In this document: piece by piece, positions 19,776 through 27,901 of the stretch | Position numbering within the stretch: the first letter of the stretch is position 1 | Layout of the letters: each line of letters starts with the position of its first letter | Virus record (IMG/VR): IMGVR_UViG_3300008117_000004 | Location: 62,001-126,000 of that record | Direction: 5' to 3' (one strand) | Length of the DNA stretch: 64,000 bases | DNA from: a virus | Position numbers and translations under genes: made by a program | Notes under the pieces: generated by a model | Database searches by the model: none | Told to the model about the DNA's origin: nothing | The model's input: only the letters and a program-made list of their open reading frames with translations

Positions 19776-21137
19776 TCACGAGCCGCATGCCATGCATTCA
19801 CCAGGATCTGAATCTAAGCTACACGAGATTTCAGCCATTTGTTCTTCAACAGTTTTCTTAGCCGTATCTTGTTGTACAGTGAATTTAACTGCGTCTGCCG
19901 CTGATTTATTTCTTAAATAATAAATACCAGTTTTTAATGTGTATCTCTTATCTTTATAACATCTTGCTTTACCTTCTGAATCGTAAATAACTTGAATATT
20001 TTCTCCTTGTGGGATAATAACTTCACCATTTTCATTGGTCATTAAGTTTCTTCTACCCCATCCATAGAAGTGCATCGCTGTCAACTTAGCAAAGTTTGGA
20101 GAATCCATAAAAATATTCATTGATTGAGTTTGGTCAATAAACGCTCCTCTATCAGCAGCCATCTCGATAACATCTCTTTGTTTAATCTCATAAACAGTTT
20201 TAAAGATTTCTTTCAAGTTAGTTGGTACTTCAGGTACATTTTGAACCGAACCATTCTCAGCAATAATTTTCTTTCTTAAATTTTCATTCCATAATCCTAA
20301 CTTAACTAATTCTTTAACTAAATATTTATTTACCATAATGAAAGTTCCTGAAAGAACACTTCTTGTGTACATATTTGAAGTTTGAGCTTCACAAGATGCT
20401 TCATTACCTAAGATAGAAGCTGTTGATGCTGTTGGCATGATACAAGTTGTTAAAGAGTTTCTAACACCATACTTCTTAACTTCTTCTCTTAATTTATCCC
20501 AATCCCATCTTTTACTAGGTTTAGTTCCCCATAAATCAAATTGGAATTTACCTTGTGAAATAGGTGAACCTTCATAAGTTGCGTAAGTGCCTTGTACTTT
20601 AGCTAAATCACAAGAAGCTTTAATTGAAGCGTAATAGATAGTTTCAAAAATATCTTTATTTAATTGTTTAGCCTCTTCAGATTCATATGGTAATCCTAAT
20701 TGAAAGAAAACATCTGCTAATCCTTGAACACCTAAACCAACTGGTCTATGACATAAGTTAGAAAATTTAGCTGATGGTGATGGATAAAAGTTAACATCAA
20801 TAACATTATTTAAGTTAACAATCGCATCATAAGCAATATCATAAAGTTTATTAAAATTATAAGTTTTATTCTTATTGATAAACTTAGGAAGTGCTAAAGA
20901 AGCTAAGTTACAAACTGCTGTTTCATTTACTTCTTCTTGACCCCAGAATTCACCTAACCCTAATTTCTCTAATAACTCTTTATTTTCTAAAATAGCTTTT
21001 TGCGTTTTAGTAACGCCTGTCGCTTCAACTATTTCAGCACAGTTATGTACTAATATATTATTAGCATAAAAGTTGTGATTTTTATTCACAGTAATGTCAT
21101 AAACTGGTCTATTTTTTACTTTTTCGATTTTGATCAT
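19776..21137 (-). CDS. nrdA: Ribonucleotide reductase large subunit, C-terminal half with C-intein
   Basis: The 453-residue precursor begins with a 32-residue C-intein (block F VYDITVNKNHNFYANN, block G ILVHN). The reductase follows from Cys33 to the end. The extein carries the second active-site Cys (TAVCNLASLALP) and ends with the redox pair CMAC near the C-terminus. The +1 residue Cys33 corresponds to the thiyl-radical cysteine of class I enzymes (the SNLC motif). Trans-splicing with the N-terminal half would give a protein of about 852 residues that makes dNTPs for phage replication. A GIY-YIG gene sits between the halves. Confidence 0.9.
   Translation of the reverse strand: MIKIEKVKNRPVYDITVNKNHNFYANNILVHNCAEIVEATGVTKTQKAILENKELLEKLGLGEFWGQEEVNETAVCNLASLALPKFINKNKTYNFNKLYDIAYDAIVNLNNVIDVNFYPSPSAKFSNLCHRPVGLGVQGLADVFFQLGLPYESEEAKQLNKDIFETIYYASIKASCDLAKVQGTYATYEGSPISQGKFQFDLWGTKPSKRWDWDKLREEVKKYGVRNSLTTCIMPTASTASILGNEASCEAQTSNMYTRSVLSGTFIMVNKYLVKELVKLGLWNENLRKKIIAENGSVQNVPEVPTNLKEIFKTVYEIKQRDVIEMAADRGAFIDQTQSMNIFMDSPNFAKLTAMHFYGWGRRNLMTNENGEVIIPQGENIQVIYDSEGKARCYKDKRYTLKTGIYYLRNKSAADAVKFTVQQDTAKKTVEEQMAEISCSLDSDPGECMACGS
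21042..21137 (-). other. C-intein of split NrdA intein
   Basis: This 32-residue segment ends HN before the Cys+1 nucleophile. It contains the F and G blocks and starts with its own ATG, as expected for a split intein cut at the usual endonuclease-domain position. Confidence 0.88.
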
Positions 21138-21154
21138 AATATTTTTTTTATTTT

Positions 21155-22054
21155 TTATGAAAATTGATTTTTATTTTTCTTAAATGTCTTTAGATATTCT
21201 CTAATTTCATTTTCTTTATTCTTAAATTTATTTTCCCAATCATCCTTATAGATTATATAATAACCTTTTGTTGTATGATATGGATACATTTCCTCTTTTG
21301 AATTTGTACTTGCGGTCTTGGAAACCGACCTATTTGATGAGTTAATATAATTAGATACATCAAAACAATAATCAAATTCTCTAATTATATTGAAGTCTTT
21401 ATCAAAAAGTAAAGTTTTTTTAGCTCTACTATTACCAGATCCACTTCTTTGTTTGGATAGCTTTTCTCTTGTTGATATTGACGCGGTTCTACCCATATTC
21501 CAATGTTCTCCTCTCAACTTTGCTTTATGTGATGGATATTCTTCTAAAGGAAGACCATACATATTATTATTCGATCCTAAAGCATTTCTTCTATGCTTTT
21601 CTCTTATCTCCTCTTTTCTTGGATTATTAGTAAAGTTATCACCACCATCTCCTCCTTTTGATATATTAACTAGAGGTCCTGACTTATCATATCTATTACC
21701 AATGATTAGTATCATATCTTTTTCCTTAAAAAAGGCATCTGATATACTCATACCATCAATATATTTCAATATAATTGGTTCTAATTTATCTGATAATATA
21801 CTCTTTATTATATTCTTTTTGTAATTATTATTTGTTATATCCTTATCGTTTTTCGCGTATTGTAAATGTCGAACTTTTCGATCATGTATAGTTTTACCAC
21901 TAGAAGCACCAACATAAAAAGGTTCATGATTAAATTCATATTCACCATATTTATAGTCTCCTGATTTTCTAGGATCCAGATAAACATAGATAAAGGATGT
22001 ATTATCTATGTTATCTGTTATAAAATCCTCATAATTAAACAAGTTCTTTTTCAT
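21155..22054 (-). CDS. GIY-YIG homing endonuclease between the NrdA halves
   Basis: The 299-residue protein starts with a GIY-YIG-type domain: FIYVYLDPRKSGDYKYGEYE, then PFYVGASSGKTIHDRKVRHL. NUMOD3-like segments follow (GRTASISTREKLSKQRSGSG), with a C-terminal DNA-binding part (LFDKDFNIIREFDYCFDVSN). It overlaps the end of the N-terminal NrdA gene by 20 bases and ends 18 bases before the C-terminal gene. It probably cuts intein-less nrdA alleles. Unlike most endonuclease genes here it lacks a nearby TTAATATATA element and may be expressed by coupling. Confidence 0.85.
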   Translation of the reverse strand: MKKNLFNYEDFITDNIDNTSFIYVYLDPRKSGDYKYGEYEFNHEPFYVGASSGKTIHDRKVRHLQYAKNDKDITNNNYKKNIIKSILSDKLEPIILKYIDGMSISDAFFKEKDMILIIGNRYDKSGPLVNISKGGDGGDNFTNNPRKEEIREKHRRNALGSNNNMYGLPLEEYPSHKAKLRGEHWNMGRTASISTREKLSKQRSGSGNSRAKKTLLFDKDFNIIREFDYCFDVSNYINSSNRSVSKTASTNSKEEMYPYHTTKGYYIIYKDDWENKFKNKENEIREYLKTFKKNKNQFS

Positions 22055-23657
22055 TTAATAATAAAATATCATTTTCTTCTAAATCACCAGCTCTAACATA
22101 TCCTCTATTTTGAGTCCAAACTTGATGATCCTCTGTACAGATTATGTAATTCCCACTTTCATCTGTTACTTTGATAGTTTCCGCATTATGATTGGTTATA
22201 CCAGAGTTTTCAACCAAACACCACTCATCAATTCCTGTTTCTAAGTCTCTAGAAAGAACTTCTATTTTCTTACCATTCTTAAACATAAGATCTATTGTGA
22301 CCATATCAAATTCTTTCTCTACACCTTCAACTCTACACTTAACTAAAGTATCTCCATCTAAACATAGATTAGATGAGTGTATCATTCCAATATTTGATTG
22401 ATTTGATTTCTCATTGATTGAATCTTTGTATAATAAGTATGGTGTACCAGTTTCAATTTGAGATTCTAATATTTTATTCCAAACTTCTCTTGCTTTAACA
22501 ACTCTTTTAGCTTTTCCAGCCGCTTCATAAGAAGTATAAAGTTTGTTAAATTCTTCACCATAAGTTTCATTCAATCCAGTACATTCGTGAGGACACATTA
22601 ATGACCAATCAGCATCTAACTCAACTCTTTCCATAAACAAGTCGTTCATCCACATTGCTAAGAAAAGGTCACGAGCTCTAATTTCATCTTTACCTTGGTT
22701 CTTTCTTAAATCTAAGAAGTCCATAATATCAGCGTGCCATGGTTCCATATAAATAGCAATTGATCCTTTACGTTTACCACCACCTTGGTCTACCGCTCTC
22801 GCTGTCTCATTATAGATTTTTAAGAAAGGAATAATACCATTTGAAGTACCGTTTGTACCAGCAATATAAGTTCCTTTAGCTCTTACTTTGTTAAAAGAGA
22901 TACCAATACCACCCGCGTTTTTAGAGATTTGAGCAGCTTCTTTTAATGTGTTAAAAATACCATCAATAGAATCTGATTCAGTATCTAATAAGAAACAAGA
23001 AGATAATTGTGGTCTACCTGTTCCAGAGTTGAATAATGTTGGTGTTGCGTGAGTATAATAACCTTCTGATAATTCGTTATAAGTTTTAATTACTTTTTCT
23101 AAGTTTTCACCCCAAATTTGAAGTGCTGTTCTCATATACATATACTGAGGTCTTTCAGCAACTTTACCATTAATTTTTAATAAGTAAGATTTCTCTAAAG
23201 TTTTGTAACCAAAGTAATCAAAGTTATGATCTCTTGAGTGTACAATAGCTGAATCTAAATCATCAGCGTGTTTTTTAACAATGTTGTAAAAATCCAAAGA
23301 AACAATTGGAGAATGTTTCTCTGTCATTGGATCTACATAGTTATATAAATCTTTAACTGTTTCTGAAAAGCTCTTTTTAGTTTCTTTATGTAAAGAAGTA
23401 ATAGCGATTCTTGCTGCTAAAACTGAGTAATCTGGGTGTTTTGTTGTAAGAGAAGCCGCAGTTTCCATTGCCAATTGATCTAACACAGAAGTTTTAATAT
23501 CTGGTGTAATACCTTCAATAACTTTTTGTGCGATCTCAAACGGTGCTATCCACTTTTGATCTAATCCATAAGTTTGTTGTGTTATACGATCAACAATCTT
23601 ATTGAAATTAACGGTTTCTTTCTTACCATTTCTTTTTGTGACTTTTATCATGCTCAT
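22035..23657 (-). CDS. nrdA: Ribonucleotide reductase large subunit, N-terminal half with N-intein
   Basis: The 540-residue precursor has an N-terminal ATP-cone (IKVTKRNGKKETVNFNKIVD; about residues 1-95) and then the class I large-subunit barrel. This includes LSSCFLLDTESDSIDGI with the first redox Cys, and GIGISFNKVRAKG. At MIHSSNL the extein stops (residue 431) and a 109-residue N-intein follows, starting CLDGDTLVKC. The break falls exactly before the radical cysteine of the SNLC motif. No nrdB was seen in the window. Confidence 0.9.
   Translation of the reverse strand: MSMIKVTKRNGKKETVNFNKIVDRITQQTYGLDQKWIAPFEIAQKVIEGITPDIKTSVLDQLAMETAASLTTKHPDYSVLAARIAITSLHKETKKSFSETVKDLYNYVDPMTEKHSPIVSLDFYNIVKKHADDLDSAIVHSRDHNFDYFGYKTLEKSYLLKINGKVAERPQYMYMRTALQIWGENLEKVIKTYNELSEGYYTHATPTLFNSGTGRPQLSSCFLLDTESDSIDGIFNTLKEAAQISKNAGGIGISFNKVRAKGTYIAGTNGTSNGIIPFLKIYNETARAVDQGGGKRKGSIAIYMEPWHADIMDFLDLRKNQGKDEIRARDLFLAMWMNDLFMERVELDADWSLMCPHECTGLNETYGEEFNKLYTSYEAAGKAKRVVKAREVWNKILESQIETGTPYLLYKDSINEKSNQSNIGMIHSSNLCLDGDTLVKCRVEGVEKEFDMVTIDLMFKNGKKIEVLSRDLETGIDEWCLVENSGITNHNAETIKVTDESGNYIICTEDHQVWTQNRGYVRAGDLEENDILLLNEKELV
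22038..22364 (-). other. N-intein of split NrdA intein
   Basis: The 109-residue segment has block A (CLDGDTLVKC) and block B (NYIICTEDHQVWT with the TxxH histidine motif), and ends LLLNEKELV. The split site is the canonical one, with a long N part and a short C part. Confidence 0.88.
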
Positions 23658-24695: not shown

Positions 24696-24749
24696 AGATT
24701 TTTTTTATTTTTTGTATTGTTTTATATAATTTTTTATTATCTTTGTTTC

Positions 24750-25919
24750 TTATTGATCTAAAAACTGATCGTTTTCTAGTGTTAAATAAACTGGATTTAA
24801 ACTCAATCTAATCTGTGATTTTAAGAAATCACCATCTCTTTGTTTAAGTAGTTTAAATCTATATAAGTTTTGTCTTTTCATTTCTTCTGTACGGATGATA
24901 GCAAAGAAGGTGTCAGCAGTCTCTGCTATTGCTTTTGACTCAGGTACGGCTTCTAATGTAATATCGGATGAGTTCCAAGCATCTTTAGCAACCTGCACAC
25001 CAGTTATAACAGGACACATATATTTTGCTCCCATTGCTCTTAATCCCTCTGCTAAGTGTTTACCCTTAGTATAAAGATTATCAGCATTAGATCCTTTATT
25101 AGCAGCAATCAATGTAATATAATCAACTATAATTAGGTCGATTTTTATACCTCTCTTTTCTTTTAATCTTTGAATATAATTATCAAAGTCATTAACAGTT
25201 GCTGTTCCGGCTGCCCAGAATTTAGTTATAATTTTACCAACTTTATTTTCAAATAAATCAACACCACCTTCTATTCGTTTGAGAGCATCTATCTTAGATT
25301 TAATCAATTCAACATCCTTAGATTGATTATCATAATCATTAATAGGAATTTTTAACCTCATAGCACCTAATCTCTTCATAACTTTACGCTCACTCATTTC
25401 AAGAGTGATATAAAGAACATTGTGTCCCATATTTGCTGATTTAACGGCAAAATTTTGCATCCAAAGAGAATTGTGACTAAGAATATCATTTATATAATAC
25501 TGTTTATTAGAACCCTCTGATAGTTGTAAATCATACATATGTGAATTTTTTCCGGTTTTTGATATATTCATAATTTGCTCCGGTCCATCTTTTGTCATTA
25601 TAAAATTACCCAATTCTAATTTCTCACAATATATCTCTGTCAAATCACATTTTTTTGATGAAAAGTCCATATTATCACATCTATATAATAGATGTTTGTC
25701 AGCGCATATTAAATTTTTACCACCGGAGGTAATAATTTCAAATTCTTCAAATTTTATTGTTTTACCAATACCCTCTATATTAACCCATCCATTTGGGGTC
25801 AATACCTCAAAATTATCCACCTCATATGCTTCGATGAATTTATCATAAAGCGGTCTATCATACTTACCTTCTAATAGACTATCTGCTTCTATTACTTCAA
25901 AATTATCTAAATTATTCAT
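24750..25919 (-). CDS. Replicative helicase (gp41/DnaB type), C-terminal half with long C-intein
   Basis: The 389-residue precursor starts with a 150-residue C-intein holding block B-like KNLICADKHLLYR and the terminal ILSHN. The extein begins SLWMQNFAVKSA, so joining to the N half rebuilds the Walker A loop ETNNGK-S. The helicase part shows VLYITLEMSERKV, Walker B-like IDLIIVDYITLIA and C-terminal TADTFFAIIRTEEMKRQ. It would unwind DNA at the fork as a hexamer. The ATG overlaps the stop of the endonuclease gene by 8 bases. Confidence 0.9.
   Translation of the reverse strand: MNNLDNFEVIEADSLLEGKYDRPLYDKFIEAYEVDNFEVLTPNGWVNIEGIGKTIKFEEFEIITSGGKNLICADKHLLYRCDNMDFSSKKCDLTEIYCEKLELGNFIMTKDGPEQIMNISKTGKNSHMYDLQLSEGSNKQYYINDILSHNSLWMQNFAVKSANMGHNVLYITLEMSERKVMKRLGAMRLKIPINDYDNQSKDVELIKSKIDALKRIEGGVDLFENKVGKIITKFWAAGTATVNDFDNYIQRLKEKRGIKIDLIIVDYITLIAANKGSNADNLYTKGKHLAEGLRAMGAKYMCPVITGVQVAKDAWNSSDITLEAVPESKAIAETADTFFAIIRTEEMKRQNLYRFKLLKQRDGDFLKSQIRLSLNPVYLTLENDQFLDQ
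25470..25919 (-). other. Long C-intein of the helicase split intein
   Basis: A 150-residue C-intein is far longer than the usual 30-50. It carries sequence normally on the N side (FEVLTPNGWVNIEGI, block B TxxH-like ADKHLL), which marks an atypical split close to the intein N-terminus. Confidence 0.85.
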
Positions 25920-27093
25920 TAATAAATTTTATACATTTTTCTACGGTTTGTTTCGGGTTTTTTCTATATTCAGATTCCCAAACAATAAAAACTTCATAAC
26001 CCCTTTTTCTAAACCAATTGATTTTATCAATATCTTTTTTCCAAATTTCTTTTGATGTTACTTTCAATATAGGATGTATAAAGCTCTCATTATACTTATC
26101 AGGGTTACAGTGCCAATAATCACCATTAAATTCAATACATTTCTTTTTACTATGATCAACATAATCAAATCTATAATGTCTTTTATTTATTTTATCATAT
26201 CTAATGGTTTCTGAGTTTAACTCTTCAAAATTAATTTTGTTATTTTTAAAGTTCTCATAAATACTCCAGAAAAGATTTTGTGAAATTTTAGAATATCCAC
26301 CATTATTAAATAATTTTTTTCTATTAATTTCTATTTTCTCCTCTTCTGTTTTTGAATCTATTGTTTCGATCCATTTCCTCTGTCTCTCTTCAAAAACTAT
26401 TTTACCATCTTCTTTGCCATATTTTTCAATACATTTTTGTAACGAAAATCTATTTTGTATTTCAGATATCTTTTCAATAGCCTCCTCTTCACTAAAACCT
26501 CTTTTTAAATAGTACTCCTTTTTCGTTGGATATTTATGTGCATATTTTTCAGGATTTGATTTTAATTTAATAGAGGTTTTTAAATGAATTTCATCCATAA
26601 CCTCTTTTGCTTTTAAAATAGCATTCTTTTCAGAATATCCCTTCTCAATCCAAAAATACTTACAGTTTCTACTTCTTTTTTTGTCCCAATTTTTATCTAT
26701 TTTTCTTAATTTATTTTGTGATTCAATCCTTTCTTTCAACTGCCTTTCATTTTCTATTTTAAATTGAACTTCAGCTTCTTCTCTAGAAAGCATATTTCTA
26801 TACATGAATCCCTCTACACTATGAGAGTTAAATGATTTTTTAACACACTCTTGACTCTCACATAAATTTCTATATCCCTTTGATATAGAAATAAACTTAC
26901 CTTTACTACCACAAAAGAAACAAGAATTGTCTCTGTGATTTATATAAGTATCATAATACTCTTCATGATTCATTTTCAATGTTTTTGTAACATAACAAGA
27001 TAAACCCTGTGAACTCTCAAATATTCTATTACTAATAGGACAAGTGTAAGGAAATTCTATATCCTTATATCTTTTTTTAGCATCTGCATTCAT
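25912..27093 (-). CDS. Vsr-like homing endonuclease between the helicase halves
   Basis: The 393-residue protein has an N-terminal zinc-finger-like region (CPISNRIFESSQGLSCYV; CFFCGSKGKF with CESQEC). A helical middle contains repeated SEKNAILKAKE / SEEEAIEKISE motifs. The C-terminal nuclease domain is KKCIEFNGDYWHCNP followed by KINWFRKRGYEVFIVWE. This domain matches the Vsr-like (EDxHD-type) endonucleases described inside fractured genes that use split inteins. It carries its own TTAATATATA element 17 bases before its ATG, directly on the stop of the helicase N half. Confidence 0.8.
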   Translation of the reverse strand: MNADAKKRYKDIEFPYTCPISNRIFESSQGLSCYVTKTLKMNHEEYYDTYINHRDNSCFFCGSKGKFISISKGYRNLCESQECVKKSFNSHSVEGFMYRNMLSREEAEVQFKIENERQLKERIESQNKLRKIDKNWDKKRSRNCKYFWIEKGYSEKNAILKAKEVMDEIHLKTSIKLKSNPEKYAHKYPTKKEYYLKRGFSEEEAIEKISEIQNRFSLQKCIEKYGKEDGKIVFEERQRKWIETIDSKTEEEKIEINRKKLFNNGGYSKISQNLFWSIYENFKNNKINFEELNSETIRYDKINKRHYRFDYVDHSKKKCIEFNGDYWHCNPDKYNESFIHPILKVTSKEIWKKDIDKINWFRKRGYEVFIVWESEYRKNPKQTVEKCIKFINE

Positions 27094-27110
27094 ACTTAAT
27101 ATTTTATTTT

Positions 27111-27120
27111 TATATATTAA
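27111..27120 (-). promoter_or_regulatory. TTAATATATA promoter-like element
   Basis: The element overlaps the stop codon of the helicase N half and is 17 bases before the endonuclease ATG. The junction GATATTTAATATATAA is identical at the PolB fracture (35147-35162). Confidence 0.5.
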
Positions 27121-27845
27121 ATATCAACACCCCACTGACTAACTTTGGCAAAGAATGTTCCAAAATCAACATTTGAAACATTACCATTATTCTTATCTCT
27201 AACTTTTATCACCGTATCAAAAGAACAACATTTTCCGTTGTTAGTTTCAGCCATTATTACATTTAATGTAGAAATATCCCATCCACCACCTAGCATATGG
27301 TCAATGGTTTCGAATCCACATTTAACTTTAAATTTTGAGGAATCTTGTACGTGATTTTCAGCCTCATCAAAATCTGAACCCATATCATCATCTTGTACAA
27401 ATCTAGTTGATGACATCTCATCAACAATACCTTTAATTCTATTAGCAGCTTCGACTGCTTTATCAAAGTCAGATATTGAATCTAGATTTCTAGTTTCATC
27501 GATGATATCTACTGTACCAGTTTTTAATCGATTTGCTAAAACCCAACCATTAAAGTTTGGTTCTATAAAGTTTTTCTCATCATATTCATCAAGATTAACT
27601 TGAAGAATTGATTTTAAAATCTCTTTGGTTATCATACCTTCTTTATCTTGAAGGTTAACCATGTCTAAAATTTGTCTCGGAGTTGGGATTTCAACATCCG
27701 AACCTTTCAACATATATTCTCTAATTACGCCGTAAACAAATTGAATTTCCGAATTTCTAAAAAAATAAGCCTTTACTATCTCAAAATATTTCTTGTTCTT
27801 TAAAATGTAATTAAAATATACTTTCTCTAATTGTGGAGTAGTCAT
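27117..27845 (-). CDS. Replicative helicase (gp41/DnaB type), N-terminal half with short N-intein
   Basis: The 242-residue precursor contains the helical N-terminal domain of DnaB-type helicases (YFNYILKNKKYFEIV; MSSTRFVQDDD) and the start of the RecA-like domain (IDHMLGGGWDISTLNVIMAE). The extein ends at Lys205 of ETNNGK, inside the Walker A loop. A 37-residue N-intein follows. It needs the product of 24750-25919 to make an active ATPase, and probably acts at the fork with a primase not in the window. Confidence 0.9.
   Translation of the reverse strand: MTTPQLEKVYFNYILKNKKYFEIVKAYFFRNSEIQFVYGVIREYMLKGSDVEIPTPRQILDMVNLQDKEGMITKEILKSILQVNLDEYDEKNFIEPNFNGWVLANRLKTGTVDIIDETRNLDSISDFDKAVEAANRIKGIVDEMSSTRFVQDDDMGSDFDEAENHVQDSSKFKVKCGFETIDHMLGGGWDISTLNVIMAETNNGKCCSFDTVIKVRDKNNGNVSNVDFGTFFAKVSQWGVDI
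27120..27230 (-). other. Short N-intein (37 residues) of the helicase split intein
   Basis: It starts CCSFDTVIKVRDKNN, with Cys1 directly after the Walker A lysine and the block A pattern C-x4-T-x-I/V shifted as in phage gp41 inteins. It ends SQWGVDI. Such a short N fragment marks an atypically split intein. Confidence 0.82.
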
Positions 27846-27901
27846 TTATAATAATTATTTTTTAATCATGAATTATATAAATAAACTAATCTTTGTTTAA
27901 A

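What the first reader, a model, noticed from the sequence alone, without database searches (positions are those of the whole stretch)
24750..27845. Helicase gene fractured at the Walker A loop by an atypically split intein (37 + 150 residues) with a Vsr-like endonuclease gene between the halves
The N half ends ETNNGK followed by a 37-residue N-intein. The C half opens with a 150-residue C-intein ending HN, then SLWMQNF. Splicing rebuilds GK-S exactly. The split near the intein N-terminus is rare (the AceL/VidaL-type split inteins known from metagenomes). The endonuclease gene between them matches the published 'fractured gene' arrangement.
Basis: partly seen in the sequence, partly recalled or inferred. 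Interest (0 to 1): 0.85.

Follow-up and report, generated by a model that had tools for sequence, protein, structure and literature searches.

The report
Split helicase rejoined by broken intein
A virus of bacteria keeps its DNA-unwinding enzyme as two separate genes whose protein halves are probably stitched together by a self-splicing insert; comparison with relatives suggests how such unusually split inserts arise, spread and keep landing on the same ATP-binding loop.

Summary
On the minus strand lie an N half (205-aa helicase part + 37-aa N-intein), a 393-aa endonuclease and a C half (150-aa C-intein + 239-aa helicase part); joining GK to S rebuilds Walker A exactly. Of 47 intein-free relatives examined, 45 give one full helicase with that junction. 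Fourteen lineages studied carry a split intein there, 8 with an endonuclease, 6 without. L018 and empty L040 match closely on both sides of the site, apart from the insert, over 2.5 kb and 0.7 kb. The endonuclease model resembles Vsr / I-Bth0305I. The N-intein is homologous to the start of a contiguous terminase intein, so both pieces belong to one intein cut after its first helix (AceL/GOS-TerL position, not VidaL's). 'Rare' does not hold: 75 of 80 surveyed related viral loci are split here, in three different ATPases (helicase, terminase, SbcC-like), at GK|S/T in the 68 where the N half was found. Campylobacter phages CP220 (contiguous) and F379 (fractured, endonuclease inside) show both states. 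Unexpected: in the window's clade the N-intein is about 30% conserved, its partner about 70%. Trans-splicing and homing are untested.

The parts
27231..27845 (-). N-extein: N-terminal 205 aa of a T4 gp41/DnaB-like helicase, ending at GK of Walker A
   Evidence: phrog_19 residues 14-205, E 9e-11; 82-83% identical to uninterrupted helicases of huge phages LR745206/LR756502
27117..27230 (-). 37-aa N-intein (Cys1) and TAA stop
   Evidence: similar to the start of the contiguous TerL intein of Vibrio phage VP-1, shuffle p 0.0005
25912..27093 (-). free-standing endonuclease, 393 aa, overlapping the C half by 8 bases
   Evidence: related ORF between the halves in 8 of 14 lineages
25915..26298 (-). 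Vsr-like catalytic domain of the endonuclease (about residues 266-393), with invariant D310, E321, D325, H328, D354
   Evidence: alignment A6, eight sequences; VIA Z 10.4 to Vsr 1cw0, Z 8.9 to I-Bth0305I 3r3p, next unrelated row 7.8; Foldseek E-values not significant, best 0.059; model confident from residue 311 on, weak before
25470..25919 (-). 150-aa C-intein with block-B-like CADKH and terminal SHN
   Evidence: PDB profile match to CatC 6dsl_B E 1e-6, gp41-1 6qaz E 4e-6, VidaL 6vgv E 2e-4
24750..25469 (-). C-extein: 239-aa helicase ATPase core, beginning with the +1 Ser of Walker A, and stop
   Evidence: PF03796 E 3e-15; model (mean pLDDT 58) matches T4 gp41 8dtp/8gao E 1e-16

Best explanation
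The helicase gene was invaded at the GK|S codons of its Walker A motif by a mobile intein whose free-standing Vsr-like endonuclease sits in the loop after the intein's first helix, so the gene is now two genes with the endonuclease gene between them. The two precursors are made separately; the 37-aa N-intein docks on the 150-aa C-intein, and trans-splicing (Cys1, Asn150, Ser+1) joins GK to SLWMQN to give a 444-aa active helicase. The endonuclease cuts intein-free helicase alleles of related phages at this site and the element is copied in by repair (homing). Shown here: the anatomy, exact empty sites, scattered presence on the helicase tree, one pair that is near-identical on both sides of the site apart from the insert, loss of the endonuclease with retention of the split, and homology of both pieces to one contiguous intein. 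Inferred: splicing activity, DNA cleavage, and the order 'contiguous intein first, endonuclease inserted later' for the helicase itself.
For: Exact junction: 45 of 47 intein-free relatives examined give one full helicase ORF reading GKSLW. Mobility: on the helicase tree (59 rows, quick method) the intein label needs 10 changes, at least 5 forced by well supported branches; the window's nearest helicase (L021, 91% identical) has no intein. L018 (intein + endonuclease) and L040 (empty) are 97-100% identical in 100-column bins over 2.5 kb left of the site and 92-100% over 700 b right of it. L012 against empty L043: C-extein 56/714 differences versus 46/2000 further downstream (p 5e-10) and 9/609 in the N-extein (p 3e-8), as expected of co-conversion. 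Endonuclease loss: L009/L010 keep the end of an endonuclease gene (KQTIEKCIKFINE) beside a still-split intein. Intein identity: CatC E 1e-6; VP-1 N-terminal match, 14 N-inteins together score 717 versus shuffled mean 276, sd 15. Endonuclease fold. C-intein under strong constraint (median dN 0.21, dS 1.68). How the split can arise: Campylobacter phage CP220 has the terminase intein contiguous; F379, with 99% identical terminase protein, has an endonuclease ORF in the same loop and two half genes.
Against: No splicing or cleavage assay. The N-intein profile finds no intein in the PDB, and two of 14 N-inteins (L009, L014) do not match VP-1 better than shuffles. L018 and L040 part beyond 700 b to the right (unmatched stretch, then 74-94%). 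The co-conversion tract is clear in one of the nine pairs compared; against L045 the contrast with downstream is missing, because L045 is more diverged there. The N-intein is so variable that loss of function in some lineages cannot be excluded. All helicase inteins seen were split; none was contiguous. Label shuffles on the tree give as few changes in 18-24 of 500, so the intein is also somewhat clustered. Tree-conflict tests (p 0.002-0.03) were chosen after seeing the trees.
Confidence: 0.88

Rival explanations
1. Decayed remnant: the intein no longer splices, the halves work as a two-piece helicase or not at all.
For: N-intein median identity 30% within the clade, dN/dS near 0.75 by medians; L007 and L117 carry damage just upstream of the N-intein.
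Against: C-intein and both exteins are strongly constrained; Cys1, SHN and Ser+1 kept in 14 of 14 lineages; the split falls inside Walker A, where a non-covalent two-piece ATPase is unlikely (inference); one helicase over cut-off per record.
Confidence: 0.07
2. A group I or II intron with an endonuclease gene, spliced at RNA level, rather than an intein.
For: Endonuclease ORF inside an interrupted gene; [quoted passage not shown]
Against: No intron family in Rfam across 24700-27900 at E <= 0.1; the only hit is a microRNA family far below its gathering score. Both flanks translate into intein sequence ending HN|S.
Confidence: 0.02
3. Assembly artefact: two alleles wrongly joined.
For: L007 and L117 show odd sequence beside the junction.
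Against: Same layout in 14 distinct lineages from many contigs, several recovered twice, and in a cultured Campylobacter phage terminase.
Confidence: 0.01

Closest known systems
AceL-TerL and GOS-TerL naturally split inteins (engineered consensus: Cat)
   Same: Split after the first helix (S2); short N-intein (25 and 37 aa published, PMC11766414 table row seen; here 37); CatC is the best PDB match of the C-intein profile (second to gp41-1 with the joined profile).
   Different: Host is a helicase, not the terminase; +1 residue Ser, not Cys; C-intein 150 aa, not 104-115. Whether AceL/GOS have an endonuclease gene beside them I did not see.
[quoted passage not shown] 2009)
   Same: Two half genes, split intein halves, Vsr-like endonuclease gene between them.
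   Different: Intein cut near its N-terminus, not at the canonical site; Walker A GK|S site. The paper is not held; this comparison rests on its title in reference lists and on recall.
Terminase (TerL) inteins of cultured phages: Vibrio phage VP-1 (contiguous), Campylobacter phages CP220 (contiguous) and F379 (fractured)
   Same: Homologous intein in the P-loop region; in VP-1 also at GK|T; in F379 split in the same loop with an endonuclease ORF inside.
   Different: Host gene; F379's insertion lies at Q|S, a little before the site used here; F379's endonuclease ends in a GIY-YIG-type (T5orf172, below Pfam's cut-off) domain instead of Vsr.
I-Bth0305I homing endonuclease / Vsr
   Same: Catalytic fold (Z 8.9 and 10.4).
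   Different: Sequence match weak (E 0.03 to Vsr, none listed to I-Bth0305I); the rest of the protein was not matched to them.

Membership tests
Split intein / fractured gene with homing endonuclease | Host gene in two ORFs that rebuild an intact protein at the splice point | tested here: met
   GK|S rebuilt; 444 aa, among the lengths (399, 442-446, 450 aa) of uninterrupted relatives
Split intein / fractured gene with homing endonuclease | Nucleophile at intein position 1, terminal HN, nucleophile at +1 | tested here: met
   Cys1, SHN, Ser+1 in 14 of 14 lineages
Split intein / fractured gene with homing endonuclease | Endonuclease gene between the halves, Vsr-like fold | tested here: met
   (VIA Z 10.4 and 8.9; Foldseek E not significant)
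Split intein / fractured gene with homing endonuclease | Trans-splicing of the two halves | not testable with these tools
   Needs expression of both halves
S2-type atypically split inteins (AceL-TerL, GOS-TerL) | Break after the first helix, N-intein of about 25-40 aa | tested here: met
   Window intein aligned with contiguous VP-1 intein: break falls in the loop between the IGDF region and the KF(I/V) strand; helix itself taken from the published scheme, not modelled
S2-type atypically split inteins (AceL-TerL, GOS-TerL) | Sequence kinship to the Cat/AceL C-intein | tested here: met
   6dsl_B CatC E 1e-6
S1-type split inteins (VidaL, PolB16) | Break right after strand beta2, N-intein about 15-16 aa | tested here: not met
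   37 aa, and the alignment with VP-1 runs past that point
Canonical gp41-1 / DnaE-type split inteins | Break at the canonical site, N-intein about 90-130 aa | tested here: not met
   C-intein covers gp41-1 residues 16-128
Group I/II intron | Intron RNA core in the insert | tested here: not met
   No intron family at E <= 0.1
T4 gp41 / DnaB replicative helicase | DnaB_C ATPase with Walker A | tested here: met

The most novel reading that the evidence does not exclude
One lineage of selfish elements - an intein naturally cut after its first helix plus a free-standing endonuclease with a shared middle region - specialises on the Walker A GK|S/T codons of at least three non-orthologous phage ATPases (replicative helicase, terminase, SbcC-like exonuclease subunit) and moves between them. 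The 'atypical' split is its normal state and arises when an endonuclease gene invades the loop of a contiguous intein. In the window's helicase clade the 37-aa N-intein then evolves nearly free of purifying selection while its partner stays fixed, so nature holds a ready-made series of diverging short N-inteins for one conserved C-intein.
Probability: 0.5. Interest if true: 0.75.

Novelty: new variant of a known kind. Interest (0 to 1): 0.6.

Why it matters
Inteins split near the N-terminus are prized for protein labelling, and the review and paper passages I saw name only a handful of natural ones (AceL-TerL, GOS-TerL, VidaL, PolB16). This locus leads to a large natural family of them: 51 distinct N-inteins among the 68 survey loci where the N half was found, each with its natural partner. 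It also offers states that bear on how they arise: contiguous, fractured with endonuclease, fractured without it, and empty sites. The strong difference in constraint between the two intein pieces makes a testable prediction about promiscuity. The repeated use of GK|S/T in unrelated ATPases bears on why inteins favour P-loops.

Tried and rejected
Recoded stop or read-through: rejected; N-half stops are TAA in the 12 clade A loci checked, and the two half frames differ in five of the 13 loci listed. Intron: rejected. VidaL-type split: rejected by N-intein length and alignment. N-intein profile against the PDB: no intein hit, and the joined profile aligned only from position 44 or later; the N piece was tied in through the phage terminase intein instead. 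Structure of the C half: low to moderate confidence (mean pLDDT 58), and the 50 rows shown by its fold search are helicases, so it says nothing on the intein. CJLB-12 looked like endonuclease loss, but its linker is 65 bases against 102 in CP220, so the frames do not join, and the C frame has no obvious start; left unresolved. Six of the 13 Campylobacter records matched were not opened. Genome-collection scan with the clade-B C-intein found one contig, so the family looks viral. Papers: none of the titles or abstract starts listed by the ten searches was about this helicase case; most subscription journals, including Dassa 2009, are not held.
Full report
WHAT IS THERE. On the minus strand, 27845 to 24750, lie three ORFs: N half (205 aa helicase + 37 aa N-intein), endonuclease (393 aa), C half (150 aa C-intein + 239 aa helicase). 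The helicase parts match DnaB-like phage helicases (phrog_19 in both halves, PF03796 in the C half) and the C-half model matches T4 gp41 (mean pLDDT 58). The record (135.8 kb, a virus fragment) has one such helicase, and so does each of the 19 other records searched, counting matches over the family cut-off; four of these have a second weak match below it. The nearest relatives in the phage collection are uncultured huge phages of 634 and 642 kb with the helicase uninterrupted, 80-84% identical, one place each.

EMPTY AND FILLED SITES. Two scans of viral contigs gave 62 and 30 loci. Of 47 intein-free loci examined, 45 gave one full helicase ORF, each with GKSLW at the junction; L036 and L057 gave none and were dropped, and the fragments L066 and L068 were not examined. 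Intein-bearing loci reduce to ten distinct lineages close to the window (clade A) and four distant ones (clade B: L112, L115, L116, L118), found with the C-intein profile. Dropped as copies or fragments: L007, L008, L010, L016, L020, L113, L117, L019, L111. In all 14 the intein sits at GK|S, is split, starts with Cys and ends SHN. Eight of 14 have an endonuclease ORF between the halves, six do not. The later survey added further split helicase loci (such as L136, L138, L143, L146) that are not in these counts.

MOBILITY. On the helicase tree (quick method) the label 'intein' needs 10 changes, at least 5 forced by well supported branches; 18-24 of 500 label shuffles need as few, so there is also some clustering. 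L018 and L040 are 97-100% identical per 100 columns over 2.5 kb to the left and 92-100% over 700 b to the right, apart from the insert; further right they part (an unmatched stretch, then 74-94%). For L012 against L043 the C-extein is more divergent (56/714) than the sequence downstream (46/2000, p 5e-10) or the N-extein (9/609, p 3e-8), as co-conversion during homing would leave. Seven other pairs and one show no such clear tract or are too diverged; L045, L012's other near relative, is too diverged downstream to show the contrast. The C-intein data reject the helicase grouping of L013, L014, L017, L105 (AU p 0.029) and the helicase data reject the intein grouping (p 0.0025), but these groups were picked after seeing the trees. 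L009/L010 keep the end of an endonuclease gene (KQTIEKCIKFINE; window KQTVEKCIKFINE) just before the C half: the endonuclease was lost, the split stayed.

ENDONUCLEASE. Sequence profile against the PDB: Vsr, E 0.03. Predicted model: mean pLDDT 72, pTM 0.35; block means 79-91 from residue 311 to the end, 40-75 in 261-310. Foldseek puts Vsr first and I-Bth0305I fifth without significant E-values (0.059 and 1.6). VIA-align gives Z 10.4 (Vsr 1cw0, 130 residues, 4.4 A) and 8.9 (I-Bth0305I, 94 of 97 residues, 3.5 A), then 8.8 for a putative endonuclease (3hrl) and a second Vsr entry; the next rows, mitochondrial ribosome proteins, are at 7.8 and below. D310, E321, D325, H328 and D354 are invariant in eight sequences.

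THE INTEIN IS ONE INTEIN CUT IN TWO. The C-intein profile hits CatC, gp41-1 and VidaL (E 1e-6, 4e-6, 2e-4); with the pieces joined the order is gp41-1, CatC, VidaL (7e-6, 2e-5, 4e-5). A clade-B intein with its two pieces joined matches contiguous terminase inteins of cultured phages from its first to last residue, best Vibrio phage VP-1, 38% identity, E 3e-25; there the intein also lies at GK|T. The window's N-intein fits the start of the VP-1 intein better than any of 2000 shuffles; 12 of 14 N-inteins do so at p <= 0.002, L009 and L014 do not. The break falls in a loop after the first helix. By the published nomenclature that is position S2, as in AceL and GOS TerL, while VidaL and PolB16 are S1 (PMC13014065, passages seen). 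A 37-aa N-intein is published for GOS-TerL (PMC11766414, passages and table row seen).

SPLIT IS THE RULE IN THIS FAMILY. A scan with the clade-B C-intein kept the best 80 of 98 viral loci. The C-intein begins its own ORF in 75, is contiguous with an upstream frame in 3 (L155, L177, L197, terminases), and 2 could not be judged (L202, L214, contig ends). By C-extein the split ones are 58 terminases, 13 helicases and 4 SbcC-like; the motif-based call agrees with BLAST against reference C-exteins in 78 of 78, and family profiles confirm one terminase and one SbcC-like member (L165, L169). Near-copies are included: about 61 are distinct. An N half was found for 68 of the 75; all 68 read GK before Cys1, though the search pattern admitted only GK, GR or RQ followed by Cys. 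N-inteins are 32-56 aa, median 37; 53 of 68 have an ORF of at least 110 aa between the halves. In 51 of these 53 an ORF resembles one of the eight helicase endonucleases at E <= 1e-3 (some are the same loci again); the exceptions are L148 and L165.

HOW THE SPLIT ARISES. Of seven Campylobacter phage records opened (of 13 matched), CP220, IBB_35, CP20 and CP21 have the terminase intein contiguous; F379 and CJLB-13 (identical here) have it fractured in the same loop with an endonuclease ORF; CJLB-12 is unclear. CP220 and F379 terminase proteins are 99% identical in both parts; the KFIESYEC of contiguous forms reads KIIESYEC in F379, so the fractured form looks derived. [quoted passage not shown] a paper on F379 has no mention of inteins (PMC7692668, word search).

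A FAST N-INTEIN. In clade A (45 pairs) median identity is 67% N-extein, 30% N-intein, 70% C-intein, 77% C-extein; median dN and dS are 0.70 and 0.93 for the N-intein and 0.21 and 1.68 for the C-intein (37 codons, rough; dS undefined in 8 of 45 C-intein pairs). For 20 of the 39 distinct terminase N-inteins of this family, the 59 pairs with C-inteins 55-85% identical have first-30-residue identity of 47% (median C-intein 58%) against 30% in clade A (median C-intein 70%) (pairs are not independent). Clade B helicases are not fast: 47-77% in six pairs. GOS-TerL's N-intein can be swapped with AceL's (PMC11766414); such tolerance would let the N piece drift.

VERDICT. Observation confirmed; interpretation right in kind, wrong on rarity and on VidaL. 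A new variant of a known kind, at the head of a larger family that looks under-described; splicing and homing are untested.

Noticed in passing
window 19776-23657 (-): Ribonucleotide reductase large subunit is fractured too: N half 22035-23657 with a canonical 109-aa N-intein, GIY-YIG-type ORF 21155-22054, C half 19776-21137 with a 32-aa C-intein. Two fractured genes lie one ORF apart.
   Followed up: partly
L165:2704-3900: Between the halves of a split terminase gene sits a TnpB gene (PF07282, PF01385, PF12323), flanked by what look, by eye, like remnants of the start and end of the usual endonuclease: an RNA-guided-nuclease gene has landed in the homing-endonuclease slot.
   Followed up: partly
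L169, L170, L176 (between the halves); L128:1366-2511: Endonucleases in SbcC-like genes and in Campylobacter phage F379 share the middle (perhaps DNA-binding) region with the helicase enzymes, but L169 (phrog_681 endonuclease) and F379 (T5orf172, below cut-off) have a different, GIY-YIG-like C-terminal part: nuclease domain swapping.
   Followed up: partly
L007:966-1520 and L117:2573-2688: Odd sequence just upstream of the N-intein: a 174-base in-frame deletion in L007 (otherwise like the window) and a scrambled stretch of about 115 bases in L117 relative to L116. Assembly error or damage at the homing site.
   Followed up: no
L014:3545-4990: Its endonuclease has an extra N-terminal part of about 100 aa and falls outside the other clade A endonucleases, unlike its C-intein: the endonuclease may have been exchanged.
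   Followed up: partly
L139:3291-3989 (also in L112): A second ORF of 232 aa without any Pfam or PHROG match lies between the endonuclease and the C half.
   Followed up: no
L143-L145: Endonuclease ORF of 298 aa that stops before the EFNGD/H catalytic motif: an endonuclease in decay beside a kept split intein.
   Followed up: no
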